Origin: Halorussus marinus
GTDB lineage: Archaea > Halobacteriota > Halobacteria > Halobacteriales > Haladaptataceae
Direction: 5' to 3'
DNA length: 64,000 nucleotides
Assembly: GCF_004765795.1 (NCBI RefSeq)
Contig: NZ_SBIV01000003.1
Coordinates: 124,001 to 188,000 of the forward strand
A program made the position numbers and the translations under genes. Below the pieces are notes generated by a model, which saw nothing but the letters and a program-made list of their open reading frames with translations, was not told the origin of the DNA and made no database searches. Within the stretch, counting starts at the first letter, position 1. Each line of letters opens with the position of its first letter. This document shows positions 15,425 to 25,461 of the stretch, in pieces.

Positions 15425-16537
15425 TTAAGACGGGAGGGTCTCGGCAACGAGGTCGCGCAGGCGGCGATGGAAGCGCTCGCTCGCGAAGCGGTCCCGCGCC
15501 AGCGAGGGCCTCGCGTCGCTCTCGACGGCCGCCGAGAGCTTCGCCGCCGCGTCCGGGACCGACTCGTAGAGCCGGCGGTCCTCGCCCGCGAGCACGTCGC
15601 GCTGGCCGCCCGAATCCGGCGCGAACGCCACCATCCCGGCGGCGACGTACTCCGCGACCGTCATCCCGAAGTGCTCGTCGGGCTTGGCGTTCAGGCCGTA
15701 CCTGTGGGTCGTCAGCAGAGTTTCGAGTCGGCCCCGGGGCACGTCGGTCTCGACCGTCACATGCGACCGGGCGGCCGCCGCGCGCTCGACGCGCTCGACG
15801 TACGACCGGTAGGCGGGCGCGGCCGACCCGACGACGTGGAGGTGGAGGTCGGGCCCGCGCTCGCGGACGGCGTCGACGATCCGGATCGCGTCGAGGGTCC
15901 GCTTGTCCGGCGCGATCCGGCCGGCGACCACCACCCCGTTCTCCCGGTCGGCCCAGTCGGCGCCGCCCGTGATCGGATCGACCGGCGGGTGGACGACGGC
16001 GGGTCGTCGGTCGTACCGCTCGGCCACGACGTCGGCGGTCCACGAGGAGTTCGCGACGAGCGTCGCGTCTCCGGGGAGTCGACCCCCGCCCACGCCGGCG
16101 AGGCGACTCCAGAGCGCGTCGAGCCGGGGGGCGTCCTCGTCGCCGACCGCCCGACCGTTGAACTGCGGGTAGTGGACGTACTGGACCGACGGGATCGGCG
16201 GCGCGAACTCGTTTGCGGTGCTGACCGCGGCGTCGTACCCGTCGGCGTGTCGCCGGAAGAACCGATCCAGCAGGACGCTCCGGACCGCGAGTAGCGGTCC
16301 CGCCCGGTCGGCCGCCGTCGCGAAAGCCCGGCCGAGGAGGCGGTCGCCGGGCGGCGTCCGGACCGGAACTGCGGCGTCGGTGTCGAACAGCCGATTGAGC
16401 CCGGCCAGCGGCGGGTGCGAGAGCGTGAACAACGTTACGTCGTGTACCTCCTGGAGCGCCTCGCAGACGTGCAGACAGACGGCGTCGGCGCCGCTCCGGA
16501 GATCGAGGGTGTTGTGAACGACCGCCAGCCGTGCCAT
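15425..16537 (-). CDS. GT4-type glycosyltransferase
   Basis: A 370-residue GT-B glycosyltransferase. The N-terminal acceptor domain starts MARLAVVHNTLDLRSGADAV. The donor domain has VVAGRIAPDKRTLDAIRIV and DLHLHVVGSA. The E-x7-E motif is in EHFGMTVAEYVAAG, followed by SGGQRDVL. It would transfer a sugar from a nucleotide-activated donor to lipid or glycan at the cytoplasmic face. ATG 16537 is chosen, since sequence upstream is Arg-rich and unlike the family. It is divergent from the oxidoreductase cluster that begins at 16702. Confidence 0.85.
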   Translation of the reverse strand: MARLAVVHNTLDLRSGADAVCLHVCEALQEVHDVTLFTLSHPPLAGLNRLFDTDAAVPVRTPPGDRLLGRAFATAADRAGPLLAVRSVLLDRFFRRHADGYDAAVSTANEFAPPIPSVQYVHYPQFNGRAVGDEDAPRLDALWSRLAGVGGGRLPGDATLVANSSWTADVVAERYDRRPAVVHPPVDPITGGADWADRENGVVVAGRIAPDKRTLDAIRIVDAVRERGPDLHLHVVGSAAPAYRSYVERVERAAAARSHVTVETDVPRGRLETLLTTHRYGLNAKPDEHFGMTVAEYVAAGMVAFAPDSGGQRDVLAGEDRRLYESVPDAAAKLSAAVESDARPSLARDRFASERFHRRLRDLVAETLPS

Positions 16538-16701: not shown

Positions 16702-18669
16702 ATGAACTGCCTGTTCGTCGGCGCCGGCGAGGTGGCGCGCGAGTACGCCGCCGGGCTCGCCGACACCGATCTGGGGCTCGCGGCGGTCTGTGACCTCGAC
16801 CGCGAGCGCGCGGAGGGGCTGGCCGACGAGTACGGCGCGACCCCCTACGCGGACCTCTCGGCCGCGATCGCGGCCGAGCAGGCCCCGCTCGTTCTCAACC
16901 TCACCGGCCACGCGGCCCACGCGCCCGTCACCCGGACCGCGCTCGAAGCCGGCCGCCACGTCTTCAGCCAGAAGCCCCTGGCGATGGACGCGACGGTCGC
17001 TCGCGAACTCGTGGCGCTCGCCGACGAGCGGGGGCTCTCGCTCGCCTGCGCGCCGACCAACCCCGCGGGCGGTCCTCAGCGCCGGGCGGCGACCGCGCTC
17101 GCGGACGGTCGACTCGGGACGGTCCGGTTGGCCTACGCCCACGCCCACGTCGGTCGGGTGACCGAGTGGCACGACGATCCGGAGTCGTTCCTCCGCGTGG
17201 GGCCGCTGTACGACGGAGCGGTCTACCCGTTGACCCTGCTGGTCGCGTGGTTCGGCCCGGTCGAGCGCGTCCGCACCGCCGACGCCGCCGACCCGTGGCC
17301 CGACCGGGAAGCCCGTCGGCCGGAGCGTCCGAGCCACGTCGAGTCGACTCTCGGGTTCGCGTCGGGGCCGACGGTCAGGCTGACCGCGAGCCTCTACGCG
17401 CCCCACCGGAGTCGGGAGTTCAACGCCCTCGAACTCCACGGCGACGACGGCTCGGTGTACCTCCGGGACGCCGGCGCGATGACCGACGGCCCCGACCTCG
17501 TCTCGTTCGGCCGACAGGGCCGCGAGTACGTCTCGGTGCCGCCCCAGCGACCAGACGGCGATCGGGCGTTCGTCTCCGGGCCCGCCCGGTTCGCCGCCGA
17601 GATCCAACGCGGTCGCCAGACGCTCCGGACCGCGCGGCGGGCCGCCCACGTCGTCGCGACGTGCAACGCGATCGAGCGCGCCGCCGAGTCCGGATCGCCG
17701 GTCTCGGTCGACGCCGACGCGCCGCCCGCCGCCGCCCCGCACCCGCCCGAGTTCGGAGCCGAGTCGCGGTCGGACGCCGCGATCCGATTGCCGCCGGTCG
17801 GGGTCGGGTGCGCGCGCTACCGCGACGGCGAGTACGTCGACCGCCAGGACTCGATCGCCGCGGCCCTCGACGCGGGCTACCGGCTGCTCGACTCGGCGGA
17901 GCTGTACGGTAACGAGGCACGTATCGGCGATATTCTGGCCGCACCGGGGTCTCCTGATCGGTCGTCGCTCCACCTCACGAGCAAGGTGTGGAACACGAAC
18001 CACGGTCACGTCGCGGAGGCCTGCGAGACGACCCTCGACGCGCTCGGGATCGACCGACTCGACTCGTATCTCGTCCACTGGCCCGACGCGTGGGCGTATC
18101 AGGGGCCGCTCGTCGACCTCGCCTCCCGGCCGGTCGACGAGCAGGAGGCGCTGACGTTCCCCCGCGACGAGGACGGCGAGATCGTCGCGGCCGACGTGTC
18201 GCTGTCCGAGACGTGGCGGGCCATGGAACGACTGGTCGACCGCGGGCTGACCCGAGCCATCGGCGTCTGTAACGTCTCGGCCGATCGCCTCGCCGACCTC
18301 GTCGAGCGCGCCGACGTCGAGCCGTCCGTGGTGGAGGTCGAGACCCACCCGCTCGAACCTCGGCGGGACCTCGTCGCGTTCTGTCACCAGCGAGGGATCC
18401 GGGTGCTGGCCCACACGCCGCTGGCGTCGGGCGAGCTGGTCGGGAACCGGACGGTGGCGTCGGTGGCGGCCGACGCCGGCGTGGGGCCCGCGCAGGCGGC
18501 GCTGGCGTGGAACGTCCACCGCGGGGTCGTCCCGATCCCGTCGAGCACCGACGACGACCACCTCGTCGAGAATCTCGCGGCCGGCGCGGTCCGGCTCGAC
18601 GCCGAGCAGATCGCGCGACTCGACGGGCTGTCGGGCGCCGAACGATCGGCCGCGGGGTCCGACGCGTGA
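16702..18669 (+). CDS. Fusion: Gfo/Idh/MocA oxidoreductase plus aldo-keto reductase
   Basis: A 655-residue protein of two enzyme domains. Residues 1-340 are a Gfo/Idh/MocA-type NAD(P) dehydrogenase: the Rossmann start MNCLFVGAGEVAREYAAGL, the cofactor motif SQKPLAMD, and a C-terminal sheet domain. A Pro/Ala-rich linker (about 335-360) leads to an aldo-keto reductase with its full catalytic tetrad: Asp and Tyr in LLDSAELYGNE, Lys in TSKVW and His in LVHWPDAW. The NADP loop region near IPSSTDDDHLVENL is also present. The two domains probably act on successive carbonyl/alcohol positions of one substrate, unknown here. It overlaps the next gene (GTGA). Confidence 0.85.
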   Translation: MNCLFVGAGEVAREYAAGLADTDLGLAAVCDLDRERAEGLADEYGATPYADLSAAIAAEQAPLVLNLTGHAAHAPVTRTALEAGRHVFSQKPLAMDATVARELVALADERGLSLACAPTNPAGGPQRRAATALADGRLGTVRLAYAHAHVGRVTEWHDDPESFLRVGPLYDGAVYPLTLLVAWFGPVERVRTADAADPWPDREARRPERPSHVESTLGFASGPTVRLTASLYAPHRSREFNALELHGDDGSVYLRDAGAMTDGPDLVSFGRQGREYVSVPPQRPDGDRAFVSGPARFAAEIQRGRQTLRTARRAAHVVATCNAIERAAESGSPVSVDADAPPAAAPHPPEFGAESRSDAAIRLPPVGVGCARYRDGEYVDRQDSIAAALDAGYRLLDSAELYGNEARIGDILAAPGSPDRSSLHLTSKVWNTNHGHVAEACETTLDALGIDRLDSYLVHWPDAWAYQGPLVDLASRPVDEQEALTFPRDEDGEIVAADVSLSETWRAMERLVDRGLTRAIGVCNVSADRLADLVERADVEPSVVEVETHPLEPRRDLVAFCHQRGIRVLAHTPLASGELVGNRTVASVAADAGVGPAQAALAWNVHRGVVPIPSSTDDDHLVENLAAGAVRLDAEQIARLDGLSGAERSAAGSDA

Positions 18670-19442
18670 GCGAAGCGACCCGTTCTCCGCCCGGCGACCG
18701 GGTCCGGATCGAGGTCGCGGTGTCGGCGCTGATCGCGGGCCTCTGGCTGTTCGCCGGACTGCGAGTCACCGCCGGTCACGCCGACCCGCCGACCGCGAGG
18801 CGGTGGTTCGGCGTGGCGGGGGCGGTCGTCGTCGCGGAGCTCGCGTACCTCCGGCTCTCGCTCGACGCGTGTCGGCCCGAGTCGGGCGCCACTCGTCGCC
18901 GATCGCTCGGGCTCGCGAACGTGGTGACGCTGTGTCGGGGCGGGCTGTTCGCGTCGGTCGCGGGGTTCCTCGCGGTCCCGTCCGCCGGCCCGCTGGTGTG
19001 GGGGCCGTCGGTCTGCTACGGCGCGGGCGTCGCCCTCGACCGACTCGACGGCGCCGTCGCCCGGACTATCGGTCGCACGACGGCGCTCGGGGAGCGCCTC
19101 GACCTCGCGTTCGACACGCTCGGGTTCGTGGTCGCGCCGCTGGTCGCGGTCGCGTGGGGCCGGCTCCCGGTGTGGTACCTCTCGCTGTCGGCGGCCCGCT
19201 ACGTGTTCAAGGCCGGGGTCGCGTGGCGTCGACGCCGCGGGCGACCCGTCTGTGACCTCCCGGAGAGCCGGCTCCGGCGACCGCTGGCGGCGCTCCAGAT
19301 GTGCTTTCTCACGGTCGCGCTGGCGCCGGTGGTTCCGGCCGGCTCCCTGCGGGCGGTCGCGGCGGTCGTGCTGGCGCCGTCGCTGACCGTGTTCGCCCGC
19401 GACTACCTCGCGGTCTCGGGTCGGCTCCGGTCGACGCGTTGA
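18666..19442 (+). CDS. CDP-alcohol phosphatidyltransferase family protein
   Basis: A 258-residue membrane enzyme with GTG start overlapping the preceding stop (GTGA). The catalytic signature D-x2-DG-x2-AR-x8-G-x3-D-x3-D is intact: DRLDGAVARTIGRTTALGER followed by LDLAFD. About five hydrophobic segments surround it. Such enzymes move a CMP-linked diacyl or archaetidyl group onto an alcohol acceptor, making phospholipid head groups or inositol/glycerol phosphates. The neighbours suggest that the acceptor alcohol could be made by the flanking dehydrogenases; this is inference. Confidence 0.85.
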   Translation: MSEATRSPPGDRVRIEVAVSALIAGLWLFAGLRVTAGHADPPTARRWFGVAGAVVVAELAYLRLSLDACRPESGATRRRSLGLANVVTLCRGGLFASVAGFLAVPSAGPLVWGPSVCYGAGVALDRLDGAVARTIGRTTALGERLDLAFDTLGFVVAPLVAVAWGRLPVWYLSLSAARYVFKAGVAWRRRRGRPVCDLPESRLRRPLAALQMCFLTVALAPVVPAGSLRAVAAVVLAPSLTVFARDYLAVSGRLRSTR

Positions 19443-19534: not shown

Positions 19535-20566
19535 ATGAGCGAGCGCGCACGGTCGCTGTACTTCGAAGCGCCCGGCGAGGTCGCGCTCCGCGAGCGGGCG
19601 GTCCCGGAGCCGGGTCCCGAGGAGGTTCGGGTCGAGACCGCGATCTCGGCGATCAGCGCCGGGACCGAACTGCTGGTCTACCGTGACGAGGTGCCGACCG
19701 AGATGGCTGTCGACCCGACGCTGGAGGCGTTCGACGGCGACTTCTCGTTTCCGGTCAGCTACGGGTACGCCGCCGTGGGGACGGTGACCGCCTGCGGCGA
19801 TCGGGTCGACGACGCGTGGCGCGGCCGGTCGGTGTTCGCGTTCAATCCCCACGAGTCGCAGTTCCTCGCGGCCCCCGACTCGCTGATCCCCGTCCCCGAC
19901 TCGCTGTCGGCGACCGAGGCGGCGCTGTTGCCGACCGCCGAGACCGCGACCAATCTCGTCCTCGACGCCGCGCCGGCGGTCGGCGAGCGGGTCGCGGTCC
20001 ACGGCGCCGGCGTCGTGGGGCTGTTCACGATCGGCCTGCTCGCGGCGTTTCCCCTCTCGTCGCTGGTCGCGGTCGATCCCCTTCCGGGTCGCCGGAACCT
20101 CGCCGCCGAACTCGGCGCCGACGAGACGCTCCACCCCGACCGTAGCGACCGACTCGGCGATCACCGGGACGCCGACGAGCCGCCGGGGCTGGACCTCGCG
20201 GTCGAGATCTCGGGCCGGCCCGCCGCGCTCGACGACGCGGTCGACGCGGTCGGCTACGACGGCCGGATCGTCGTCGGCTCGTGGTACGGCCAGAAGCGCG
20301 CGGACCTCGACCTCGGCGGGGAGTTCCACCGCGCCCGGATCGACATCAGTTCGAGTCAGGTCAGCACCATCGCGCCCGATCGACGCGGCCGGTGGACCAC
20401 CGACCGCCGGCTCGACGCCGCGGTCGACCTGCTCGAACGGGTGCCCGTCGAGGAGATCGTGACCCACCGAATCCCGTTCGACGAGGCCCCGCGGGCCTAC
20501 GACCTCCTCGACGGCGCCGACGCGGGCGAGGGGTCGCCCCTGCAGGTGCTTTTGACCTACGACTGA
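19535..20566 (+). CDS. MDR superfamily dehydrogenase, lacking catalytic Cys
   Basis: A 343-residue medium-chain dehydrogenase/reductase. The catalytic-domain segment ISAISAGTELLVYRDEVP has Ser/Ala-Gly-Thr-Glu where zinc enzymes usually have Cys-Gly-(Ser/Thr)-Asp. The Rossmann motif is VAVHGAGVVGLFTIGLLAAF, and the C-terminal part has THRIPFDEAPRAYDLLDG. Replacement of the zinc Cys resembles the BchC-like/zinc-independent branch. The start ATG 19535 follows a 92-base gap with an AT-rich stretch. It is probably part of the cluster from 16.7 to 21.9 kb. Confidence 0.8.
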   Translation: MSERARSLYFEAPGEVALRERAVPEPGPEEVRVETAISAISAGTELLVYRDEVPTEMAVDPTLEAFDGDFSFPVSYGYAAVGTVTACGDRVDDAWRGRSVFAFNPHESQFLAAPDSLIPVPDSLSATEAALLPTAETATNLVLDAAPAVGERVAVHGAGVVGLFTIGLLAAFPLSSLVAVDPLPGRRNLAAELGADETLHPDRSDRLGDHRDADEPPGLDLAVEISGRPAALDDAVDAVGYDGRIVVGSWYGQKRADLDLGGEFHRARIDISSSQVSTIAPDRRGRWTTDRRLDAAVDLLERVPVEEIVTHRIPFDEAPRAYDLLDGADAGEGSPLQVLLTYD

Positions 20567-20618: not shown

Positions 20619-20996
20619 GTGTACGAACTGTCCGTCTCTCGCGACTTCGTCGCCCAGCACTTCCTGACGGTGCCCGACCCGGGACCGGAGGGCGAGGTTC
20701 ACAGCCACCACTTCGAGGTCGCGGTCCGGTTCGCGGGCCCCGAGCTCGGCGAGTACGGCTACCTCGTGGACATCGACGCGGTCGACGAGGCGCTCGACAC
20801 GCTCGAAGCCCGCTACCGGGACGCGCTGTTGAACGACCTCCCGGAGTTCGCCGACGCGAACCCGAGCGTCGAGCGGTTCGCCCGCGAGTTCGGCGACCGG
20901 CTCCTCGCGGAGCTCGACCCCGAGACGCCCGACCGGCTCGCGGTCCGGATGTGGGAGGACGACGCCGCGTGGGCGAGCCACGAGCGGTCGCTCTGA
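20619..20996 (+). CDS. PTPS/QueD-fold protein without catalytic Cys/His
   Basis: A 125-residue COG0720 (6-pyruvoyl/6-carboxy-tetrahydropterin synthase) homologue beginning with GTG. Zinc-binding histidines are kept: His14 and the H-x-H pair His28/His30 in VHSHHFEV. The C-terminal substrate-anchoring Glu is probably in RMWEDDAAW. The protein has no cysteine at all; the position four residues before H-x-H, normally the catalytic Cys, is Glu24. In the segment aligned to DHKYLND the sequence is RDALLND, so the catalytic His is also lost. It is therefore unlikely to make 7,8-dihydropterin or carboxytetrahydropterin by the usual mechanism. It lies one base upstream of the methyltransferase gene. 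Confidence 0.82.
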   Translation: MYELSVSRDFVAQHFLTVPDPGPEGEVHSHHFEVAVRFAGPELGEYGYLVDIDAVDEALDTLEARYRDALLNDLPEFADANPSVERFAREFGDRLLAELDPETPDRLAVRMWEDDAAWASHERSL

Positions 20997-20997
20997 G

Positions 20998-21852
20998 ATG
21001 GTCGACGACCACGCCCGGATCGACTACCTGAACGCCAAGCGCTCGGTCGACGAGCGCGCGTTCGCGCGGTCGGTCCGCGAGCGACTCCTCGCGGCGCTCC
21101 CCGAGCGCCCGACGGTGTTCGAGGCCGGCGCCGGCACCGGCGTGACCGTCCCCCGACTGCTCGAGTGGGGCGTCGAGGCGGGTCGCTACCGGGGGGTCGA
21201 ACGCGCCGAGGCGCTGGTCGAACACGCCCGGACGGCCCGCGCCGCCGAGCTCGAGGCGGCCGGCTACGACCCGGTCGAGACCGACCGCGGGTTCCGGGTC
21301 GAGGAGCTCTCGGTGGCGTTCGAGGCCGGCGACGCGCTGGCGGCCGTCGATGGCGTCGACGCCGGCCTCGACCTGCTCGTCGCGCAGGCGTTCATGGACG
21401 TGGTCGCGGTCGAGCCGGCGGTCGCCGCGTTCGAGCGCGCCCTCTCGCCGGGCGGGCTCGCGTACTTCCCGATCACGTTCGACGCCGGGACCATATTCCA
21501 GCCGAGCCACCCCGCCGACGACGCCGTCGAGCGGGCGTACCACCGCGCTATCGACGCCCGGGAGAGCCGGGACAGCCGCGCGGGCAGACGCCTCCTCGAT
21601 CTGCTCGGGCGGGCCGACGGCGACCTGCTCGCCGTCGGGGCCTCCGACTGGGTGGTCCGGCCCCGCGACGGCTCGTACCCCGCCGACGAGGCGCTGTTTC
21701 TGTCGTGCATCCTCGACTTCGTCGCCGACGCGCTCGCGGGGGGCGAGGTGGCCGAGTTCGACGACTGGATCGAGACCCGCCGCGACCAGCTCGCGGCCGG
21801 GGAGCTGAGCTACGTCGCCCACCAGTACGATCTGCTCTACCGGGCGCCCTGA
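20998..21852 (+). CDS. SAM-dependent methyltransferase
   Basis: A 284-residue class I methyltransferase. The SAM motif I is TVFEAGAGTGVTVPRLLEWG (about 39-58). Motif II-like acid is in YRGVERAEALVEHAR, and DLLVAQAFMDVV gives motif IV. A C-terminal region with YVAHQYDLLYRAP is kept in the cluster's homologues as I remember them. The ATG start lies one base after the stop of the PTPS-like gene, so the two are cotranslated. Substrate unknown; it may modify the product of the same cluster. Confidence 0.82.
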   Translation: MVDDHARIDYLNAKRSVDERAFARSVRERLLAALPERPTVFEAGAGTGVTVPRLLEWGVEAGRYRGVERAEALVEHARTARAAELEAAGYDPVETDRGFRVEELSVAFEAGDALAAVDGVDAGLDLLVAQAFMDVVAVEPAVAAFERALSPGGLAYFPITFDAGTIFQPSHPADDAVERAYHRAIDARESRDSRAGRRLLDLLGRADGDLLAVGASDWVVRPRDGSYPADEALFLSCILDFVADALAGGEVAEFDDWIETRRDQLAAGELSYVAHQYDLLYRAP

Positions 21853-24252: not shown

Positions 24253-25461
24253 GTGGCAGACACCGAGTACTGCAGACGGACGGCGGTCACGGGTCTCTCC
24301 GTGTCTCCGACGGACGCCACACGGCTCCGCGAGCTGGTTTCGGAGTGGAAACGCGGCTGTCAGCTCGCGGTCAACGAGGCGTGGGGTGTCTGTCACACGC
24401 GGAGCGAGGTCCAACAGCTCGCGTACGACGAACTCCGCGAGCACACCGACCTCAGTAGCCAGCACGCGGTGTTGGCGACCCACCGAGCGGCCGAGGCGAT
24501 CAAACGCGCCGGCGAGTCGGGGACCAAACCCGAGTTCACCAGCCCGACCGTCGCGTTCGACACCCGCACGATGACGGTGTTCGAGGACCGCACGGTCAGC
24601 CTCACGACCACCGACGACCGGGTCCGGTGTGACCTCGATCTGCCGGCCGACGGCGGCTACCAGTCCCGATACCTCGACGGCGAGGAGTGGGAGCCCGCAA
24701 AGAGCGCGCTCCGCTACCGCGACGGCGAGTTCGTCTTCCACCTCGGCTTCCGGACGCCCAAGCCCGCCGTCGACCCGCCGACCGAGGGCGCGACCGTGCT
24801 CGGGGTCGATCTGGGCGTCGAGAACCTCGCGGTCACCAGCACCGCCCGGTTTTTCCCCGCGGGCGAACTCTCCCACCGCCGCGAGGAGTTCGAGCGCGTC
24901 CGGGAGTCCCTCGAAGCGACCGGCACCCGGAGCGCGTCCCGGACTCTCCGGCAGGCGGGCTACCGGACCGACCAGTTCGTCACCCATCGGCTCCACGAGA
25001 TCGCCAACGGCATCGTCGAGGAGGCGACGCGCTACGACTGCGAGCTCGTCGCCTTCGGCAAGCTCGCGGAGGTCCACGACCTGCTCCCCGAGGCCGACCC
25101 CTTCCACGAGTGGCTGTTCGAGCGACTCCTCTCGATGGTGGAGTATCGTGCGGCCGCCCGCGACATCGCCGTCGTGGAGGTCAACCCCGAGTACACCAGC
25201 CAGCGGTGCATGGAGTGTGGGTTCACCCACCCGCAGAACCGCGACGTCGAGGCCGGCCACTTCGAGTGTCTCAAATGCGAGGCGTCGGCCAACGACGACT
25301 ACAACGCCGCCAAGAACATCGCGTTCCGGTGCGTGCGACGCGGCCCGCTCTCCTCGCGCGGGCTCGGCGCGGCGGCGTGTGCGCTCCAGTCGGGCGTCGT
25401 GACCCCAGACGACGGGTTCACGCCGTACGCGGAGCTGTCAGACCCGCCGCTGTCGGACTGA
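24253..25461 (+). CDS. tnpB: TnpB (IS1341-type) with RuvC-II Glu replaced by Gly
   Basis: A 402-residue RNA-guided nuclease-type protein without adjacent tnpA. The RuvC-I Asp is Asp186 (GVDLGVENLAVTS) and the RuvC-III Asp is Asp349 (NDDYNAAKNIA). The zinc ribbon is complete (Cys319, Cys322, Cys339, Cys342). In RuvC-II, where related haloarchaeal proteins read A-F-E-N-L, this one has LVAFGKLAEVHD, so the catalytic Glu is Gly269. The nuclease should be dead while RNA and DNA binding may remain. Start GTG 24253 is the first that gives the family N-terminus; others are possible. It lies 55 bases before a cupin gene whose promoter could be a target. Confidence 0.88.
   Translation: MADTEYCRRTAVTGLSVSPTDATRLRELVSEWKRGCQLAVNEAWGVCHTRSEVQQLAYDELREHTDLSSQHAVLATHRAAEAIKRAGESGTKPEFTSPTVAFDTRTMTVFEDRTVSLTTTDDRVRCDLDLPADGGYQSRYLDGEEWEPAKSALRYRDGEFVFHLGFRTPKPAVDPPTEGATVLGVDLGVENLAVTSTARFFPAGELSHRREEFERVRESLEATGTRSASRTLRQAGYRTDQFVTHRLHEIANGIVEEATRYDCELVAFGKLAEVHDLLPEADPFHEWLFERLLSMVEYRAAARDIAVVEVNPEYTSQRCMECGFTHPQNRDVEAGHFECLKCEASANDDYNAAKNIAFRCVRRGPLSSRGLGAAACALQSGVVTPDDGFTPYAELSDPPLSD

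What the first reader, a model, noticed from the sequence alone, without database searches (positions are those of the whole stretch)
20619..20996. Cysteine-free PTPS/QueD homologue inside a conserved-looking cluster
Zinc histidines (14, 28, 30) are kept, but the catalytic Cys is Glu24 and the catalytic His has become Asp, judged by alignment to the usual C-x3-H-x-H and D-H-K-Y-L-N-D segments. The protein should not run normal pterin or queuosine chemistry. It is flanked, one base away, by a methyltransferase, and near dehydrogenases and a CDP-alcohol phosphotransferase. COG0720 is known to contain subfamilies with unknown function.
Basis: partly seen in the sequence, partly recalled or inferred. 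Interest (0 to 1): 0.6.

Follow-up and report, generated by a model that had tools for sequence, protein, structure and literature searches.

The report
Repurposed pterin enzyme in conserved operon
A salt-loving archaeon carries a relative of a vitamin-making enzyme whose usual catalytic cysteine is always a glutamate, inside a gene cluster shared by archaea and many bacteria that probably makes an unknown sugar-decorated compound from GTP.

Summary
ORF 20619-20996 is a PTPS-fold protein that keeps His14/28/30, with Glu24 at the QueD cysteine position, Arg67-Asp68 at the catalytic Asp-His, and the pterin-anchoring glutamate (Glu113) kept. This is a rule, not an oddity: in 90 distinct haloarchaeal homologues position 24 is Glu in 89 and never Cys. 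With four other archaeal sequences and the bacterial PTPS-IV group (SCO6650, PDB 3d7j) they form one side of a 98/91-supported branch against Cys-type QueD. The same genome has a separate QueD next to QueE. The neighbourhood crosses domains: MDR dehydrogenase, PTPS, GT4 glycosyltransferase, methyltransferase and CDP-alcohol transferase, plus a GTP ring-opening enzyme: GTP cyclohydrolase II in bacteria and some archaea, the unrelated GTP cyclohydrolase III (ArfA) in haloarchaea. All eight haloarchaeal genomes with a second ArfA have one copy at this locus; one archaeon fuses GCH II to the dehydrogenase. Most likely it works on an aminopyrimidine or pterin made by that route, for an unknown glycosylated, methylated product. 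Queuosine is contradicted and F420 is unlikely. The exact reaction is inferred. Kind: new variant of the known, uncharacterised PTPS-IV subfamily; the haloarchaeal Glu form and ArfA swap appear undescribed.

The parts
20619..20996 (+). PTPS-fold protein, Cys-less (E24, R67-D68), three zinc His kept, pterin-anchoring E113 kept
   Evidence: PF01242 4e-25; conservation; AF2 model pLDDT 97; best fold match 3d7j SCO6650, TM 0.90
19535..20566 (+). MDR-type dehydrogenase annotated as zinc-binding alcohol dehydrogenase; beside PTPS in nearly every relative; the motifs that normally hold the catalytic zinc read SxGTE and YGYA
   Evidence: PF00107; 58/61 haloarchaeal and 80/80 bacterial loci; 36-39% identity to the bacterial cluster members; conservation
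20998..21852 (+). SAM-dependent methyltransferase, one base downstream of PTPS
   Evidence: weak Pfam methyltransferase matches; relatives in 50/61 haloarchaeal and 74/80 bacterial loci
18666..19442 (+). CDP-alcohol phosphotransferase with complete catalytic motif DxxDGxxARx8GxxxDxxxD
   Evidence: PF01066 4e-14; motif; 42/61 haloarchaeal, 68/80 bacterial loci
16702..18669 (+). fused GFO/IDH/MocA oxidoreductase + aldo-keto reductase, 655 aa
   Evidence: PF01408 and PF00248; found in 21/61 haloarchaeal loci
15425..16537 (-). GT4-type glycosyltransferase, divergent from the oxidoreductase; probably stands in for the GT4 that follows PTPS elsewhere
   Evidence: PF00534; this type in 11/61 haloarchaeal loci, the other GT4 in 39/61

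Best explanation
The protein is the haloarchaeal form of PTPS-IV: a PTPS-fold enzyme in a biosynthetic operon shared by archaea and bacteria that starts from GTP opened by GTP cyclohydrolase II (bacteria, some archaea) or III/ArfA (haloarchaea), not from the FolE product used by QueD and PTPS. SHOWN: fold, residue replacements, conservation, clade, cluster, and repeated linkage to GTP ring-opening enzymes. INFERRED: ring opening gives a formamidopyrimidine (FAPy) or diaminopyrimidine ribose phosphate; creatininase-family formamidases (in cluster, or housekeeping) remove the formyl group; the PTPS-like protein binds the 2-amino-4-oxo-pyrimidine ring through Glu113 and, with a three-His metal site and the carboxylates Glu24/Asp68 in place of Cys and Asp-His, catalyses an acid-base step on the sugar side chain or ring closure to a dihydropterin (a ring-closure role is my single most likely guess, about 0.3). 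The MDR dehydrogenase, GT4, methyltransferase and CDP-alcohol transferase then make a glycosylated, methylated, possibly phosphodiester- or lipid-linked product.
For: Clade and residues; SCO6650 nearest structure. Bacterial loci: ADH 80/80, GT4 78, MT 74, CDP-OH 68, RibD_C 58, GCH II 37, creatininase 35 of 80; annotated examples. Haloarchaeal loci: ADH 58/61, MT 50, CDP-OH 42, GT4 39 or the other GT type 11, ArfA 23 of 61. ArfA within 6 kb of PTPS in 21 of 52 PTPS+ genomes; 8 of 8 genomes with two ArfA copies have one at this locus, and none of 27 PTPS- genomes has two. ArfA tree: a deep clade of ten cluster-only copies plus separate recruitments. GCH II-MDR fusion next to PTPS and GT4 in L324; MT-GCH II-ADH-PTPS-GT4 in L328. 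ArfA makes the formamidopyrimidine and a creatininase-family enzyme deformylates it (PMC9478397).
Against: No biochemistry; the product is unknown. In this genome ArfA is elsewhere (G000:C8) and no creatininase or RibD_C lies in the cluster. Bacterial PTPS-IV has Ala at 24 and lacks the third His, so chemistry may differ between the two branches. Bacterial RibD_C, if it reduces ribose as in riboflavin synthesis, would block a ring closure through the sugar. Neighbour counts come from the best-scoring relatives, not a random sample.
Confidence: 0.6

Rival explanations
1. A PTPS-III-like folate or methanopterin enzyme: the Glu replaces Cys as in Plasmodium, making 6-hydroxymethyl-dihydropterin.
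For: PTPS-III also has Glu at the active site (PMC5041015); three zinc His kept.
Against: The PTPS-III motif is ExxHGH (Glu three before His); here it is ExxxHSH, at the Cys position. Asp-His is also replaced by Arg-Asp. No folate gene in the conserved cluster. Plasmodium PTPS ranks well below SCO6650 and QueD in fold search. PTPS-III sequences were not in the tree.
Confidence: 0.1
2. An F420 biosynthesis enzyme, as suggested (unpublished, quoted in PMC5041015) for PTPS-IV.
For: Quoted statement; ArfA also feeds F420; haloarchaea and actinobacteria make F420.
Against: CofH above its cut-off in 0 of 12 non-actinobacterial (proteobacterial) genomes that carry the cluster, but in all 3 actinobacteria. 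Cluster partners are not F420 genes.
Confidence: 0.05
3. A catalytically dead PTPS-fold protein that binds a pterin or nucleotide and regulates or scaffolds the pathway.
For: The whole catalytic triad is replaced; the bacterial branch also loses a zinc His.
Against: E24, D68, three His and E113 are almost invariant over distant haloarchaea, unlike relaxed pseudoenzymes.
Confidence: 0.13
4. A normal QueD for archaeosine synthesis with diverged residues.
For: Automatic annotation as 6-carboxytetrahydropterin synthase in plasmid records.
Against: Canonical QueD next to QueE in the same genome; QueD NCBIfam score 39 against a cut-off of 89; all three catalytic residues replaced.
Confidence: 0.02
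5. The operon mainly makes an unusual phospholipid (sugar or inositol headgroup through the CDP-alcohol transferase); the PTPS-like protein is a side player.
For: CDP-alcohol transferase with intact motif in 42/61 and 68/80 loci; glycosyltransferase and reductases.
Against: The tightest partners are ADH and PTPS, and the repeated, independently recruited GTP cyclohydrolases have no place in a plain lipid pathway.
Confidence: 0.1

Closest known systems
PTPS-IV subfamily of COG0720 (SCO6650, PDB 3d7j; FGPAQ motif)
   Same: Lacks catalytic Cys and Asp-His, keeps the pterin-anchoring Glu; nearest structure (TM 0.90, 28% identity); sister branch; same ADH-PTPS-GT4-MT-CDP-alcohol neighbourhood with a GTP ring-opening enzyme.
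   Different: Haloarchaeal form has PGPEGxxHSH instead of FGPAQxxHGAT: Glu24 and all three zinc His kept, Arg67-Asp68 instead of Asn-Tyr; GTP cyclohydrolase III instead of II; no RibD_C match in the haloarchaeal loci.
QueD (PTPS-I)
   Same: Fold, three zinc His, pterin-anchoring Glu.
   Different: No CxxxHGH, no Asp-His; QueD is encoded separately in the same genome beside QueE.
PTPS-III (folate bypass)
   Same: Active-site Glu and three zinc His.
   Different: Glu four, not three, residues before the His; no folate context.
Archaeal riboflavin/F420 entry (ArfA plus formamidase)
   Same: GTP cyclohydrolase III, and sometimes creatininase-family proteins, occur in the cluster.
   Different: No RibB/RibH/RibE-type genes found at the loci read; glycosyltransferase, methyltransferase and CDP-alcohol transferase instead.

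Membership tests
PTPS/QueD superfamily (PF01242, COG0720) | PTPS fold and profile match | tested here: met
   88.5 bits vs cut-off 22.4; Foldseek to PTPS/QueD structures
PTPS/QueD superfamily (PF01242, COG0720) | three zinc-binding His | tested here: met
   H14, H28, H30 nearly invariant; metal binding itself not tested
QueD / PTPS-I | CxxxHGH motif and Asp-His pair | tested here: not met
   ExxxHSH and Arg-Asp
QueD / PTPS-I | NCBIfam TIGR03367 cut-off | tested here: not met
   39.2 vs 89.25 bits
PTPS-II (biopterin) | CxxxxxHGH | tested here: not met
   no Cys near H28 in 89 of 90 homologues; the one Cys (L214) lies after H30
PTPS-III | ExxHGH | tested here: not met
   Glu at H-4, and HSH
PTPS-IV | FGPAQ signature (PMC5445326) | tested here: not met
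   PGPEG in haloarchaea; FGPET in L317-L319; only GP shared
PTPS-IV | groups with SCO6650-type sequences against Cys-type sequences | tested here: met
   98/91 branch; 93 in a second tree
PTPS-IV | neighbourhood with GTP cyclohydrolase (PF00925) and RibD_C (PF01872) | tested here: inconclusive
   ArfA (PF05165) instead of PF00925 in haloarchaea, PF00925 in L324/L328; no RibD_C at the haloarchaeal loci
PTPS-IV | enzymatic activity | not testable with these tools
   no published activity found in the papers held
F420 biosynthesis | co-occurrence with CofH | tested here: not met
   0 of 12 proteobacterial cluster genomes above cut-off
PTPS-V and PTPS-VI | their own motifs | not tested
   motifs not available in the papers held

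The most novel reading that the evidence does not exclude
An unknown glycosylated, methylated aminopyrimidine or pterin (a cofactor, protectant or lipid headgroup) is made from GTP by an operon shared between archaea and several bacterial phyla, with a PTPS-fold enzyme using a Glu/Asp-plus-metal active site on a ring-opened GTP product: a reaction new for this fold.
Probability: 0.4. Interest if true: 0.8.

Novelty: new variant of a known kind. Interest (0 to 1): 0.6.

Why it matters
COG0720 members are routinely mislabelled as queuosine or biopterin enzymes; this one is present in more than half of sampled haloarchaeal species (173 of 294) and, as PTPS-IV, in many bacteria, yet its product is unknown. 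The two kinds of GTP ring-opening enzyme in otherwise homologous operons give a specific, testable entry point (formamidopyrimidine or diaminopyrimidine ribose phosphate) to a pathway that may make a widespread unrecognised metabolite.

Tried and rejected
QueD role: rejected by the separate QueD-QueE locus and NCBIfam score. F420 role: rejected for the proteobacterial carriers by the CofH search. ADH-PTPS fusion suspected from long open frames (G006, G011, G199): the extra length is a stop-free stretch without a recognisable second domain, not a fusion. Phosphohalopterin or other pterin glycosides of haloarchaea as product: only recalled from memory; no held paper supports it, so not used as evidence. 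PADLOC: only a weak methyltransferase-domain match to mad2, no defence system. Creatininase copy number in haloarchaea is uninformative (1 to 8 per genome, all genomes). Phillips 2012, which defines the PTPS subfamilies, is not held.

Full report
OBSERVATION. The window is haloarchaeal (G000:C3). ORF 20619-20996 is a 125-aa PTPS protein (PF01242, 4e-25). In the alignment to E. coli QueD its H14, H28 and H30 fall on the zinc histidines, E24 falls on the catalytic cysteine, R67 on the catalytic Asp and D68 on the catalytic His; E113 keeps the pterin-anchoring glutamate (roles of the QueD residues are established knowledge of the family). An AlphaFold2 model has mean pLDDT 97.1, and its best PDB match is SCO6650 of Streptomyces coelicolor (3d7j, TM 0.90, 28% identity), ahead of QueD (about 0.8).

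CONSERVATION. A search of 294 Halobacteria-class genomes found homologues in 173. In 90 distinct sequences E24 is present in 89 and Asp in one; H14 and H30 in all; H28 in 88; D68 in 87 with Glu in three; no Cys at position 24. Four relatives from other archaea of the phylum keep the Glu four residues before the His: FGPETRLHGH (L317, L318), ESKIHSH (L320), ENTRHSH (L313). In 89 bacterial PTPS-IV sequences position 24 is Ala and the third His is Ala (HGAT), with H14, H28 and E113 kept. In the tree the Cys-less set (haloarchaea, other archaea, PTPS-IV) is one side of a 98/91 branch against Cys-type sequences; bacterial PTPS-IV is 100/99; the haloarchaeal set plus L313 and L320 is 99/97. An earlier quick tree gave the haloarchaeal plus PTPS-IV grouping 93. 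Few columns and long branches mean inner forks are unsure, and PTPS-II/III/V/VI references were not included.

NOT QUED. The genome has a second PTPS, a canonical QueD (CSRPHGHNYE) directly before QueE.

NEIGHBOURHOOD. In the window: GT4 (divergent), GFO-AKR fusion, CDP-alcohol transferase (complete motif), MDR dehydrogenase, PTPS, methyltransferase. Over 61 haloarchaeal loci: dehydrogenase 58, methyltransferase 50, CDP-alcohol transferase 42, GT4 39 (another GT type in 11, as here), GTP cyclohydrolase III 23, GFO-AKR 21, creatininase 3. Over the 80 best bacterial loci from Pseudomonadota, Actinomycetota, Acidobacteriota, a Gemmatimonadales MAG and a Nannocystaceae MAG: dehydrogenase 80, GT4 78, methyltransferase 74, CDP-alcohol transferase 68, RibD_C 58, GTP cyclohydrolase II 37, creatininase 35, as in the annotated records. 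The dehydrogenases of the two domains are 36-39% identical, so the operon core is homologous. The dehydrogenase lacks the usual catalytic-zinc motifs (SxGTE, YGYA) in the haloarchaeal set and SxGTE/YGY in the bacterial set.

GTP RING OPENING. The key finding is that the operon repeatedly acquires a GTP ring-opening enzyme, of unrelated families. In 79 haloarchaeal genomes (52 with this PTPS) ArfA lies within 6 kb of PTPS in 21; eight genomes have two ArfA copies and in all eight one lies here; none of the 27 genomes without this PTPS has two (Fisher p 0.03 for copy number, which ignores relatedness; the chance of the proximity is negligible). The ArfA tree has a deep clade of ten cluster-only copies and several separate recruitments of the common type. 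In archaeal L324 one ORF fuses GTP cyclohydrolase II to the dehydrogenase, directly before PTPS and GT4; in L328 the order is MT, GCH II, dehydrogenase, PTPS, GT4, with a creatininase nearby (L324 lies on a short contig of an incomplete genome). In twelve actinobacterial clusters the GCH II Tyr is Met or His, and all twelve also carry a creatininase. From memory, SCO6655 with Met there stops at the formamidopyrimidine; I could not check this here. ArfA produces that compound, and a creatininase-family enzyme deformylates it (PMC9478397).

MECHANISM. Shown: fold, residues, clade, operon, GTP-cyclohydrolase link. Inferred: the substrate is a 2-amino-4-oxo-pyrimidine (ring-opened GTP product, or a pterin made from it) held by E113, with a three-His metal and E24/D68 doing acid-base work. 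A ring closure or side-chain rearrangement is my favoured but weakly supported guess (about 0.3). Later steps by dehydrogenase, glycosyltransferase, methyltransferase and CDP-alcohol transferase give a decorated product of unknown structure.

KNOWN WORK. PTPS-IV has been named by the FGPAQ motif and a neighbourhood of PF00925 and PF01872 (PMC5445326); PMC5041015 quotes unpublished involvement in F420. The F420 idea fails for proteobacterial carriers: CofH above cut-off in 0 of 12, but in 3 of 3 actinobacteria. From memory, the SCO6650 structure paper reports no zinc and no PTPS activity but a pterin-like pocket; not verified here. No held paper describes the haloarchaeal Glu form or the ArfA swap, but most subscription papers are not held.

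VERDICT. Observation confirmed; interpretation partly right; new variant of a known, uncharacterised kind.

Noticed in passing
L324:1990-3723: One 577-aa ORF joins GTP cyclohydrolase II and the MDR dehydrogenase directly before PTPS and GT4 in a non-Halobacteriales archaeon; short contig of an incomplete genome.
   Followed up: partly
L053, L110, L115, L132, L134, L143, L144 (Met); L116, L125, L130, L133, L141 (His): Cluster GTP cyclohydrolase II of actinobacteria has Met or His in place of the conserved Tyr in KLRAY; all twelve clusters also carry a creatininase.
   Followed up: partly
haloarchaeal ArfA copies: A deep, cluster-only clade of ArfA (ten sequences) suggests a dedicated second GTP cyclohydrolase III in haloarchaea.
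   Followed up: partly
window 19535-20566: The 'zinc-binding' dehydrogenase and its relatives lack the usual catalytic zinc ligands (SxGTE, YGYA) but keep invariant H106 and H265.
   Followed up: partly
L250, L274 (Variovorax): Another PTPS paralogue whose sequence before HGH reads AGSRRIHGHTY, without Cys; different from PTPS-IV.
   Followed up: no
window 24301-25461: 386-aa ORF with a CxxC zinc finger near its end, looks like a TnpB-type transposon protein.
   Followed up: no
L026 and L014: Two haloarchaeal homologues have Asn in place of zinc ligand H28 while keeping E24 and H30.
   Followed up: no
L182 (G037:C1:179642-179991): A second copy of this PTPS in one genome that reads in two frames, apparently broken.
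   Followed up: no
L045:5744-6355, L049:5202-5744: About 180-203 aa protein without Pfam match (L045 copy scanned) that recurs near the cluster in four haloarchaeal loci.
   Followed up: no
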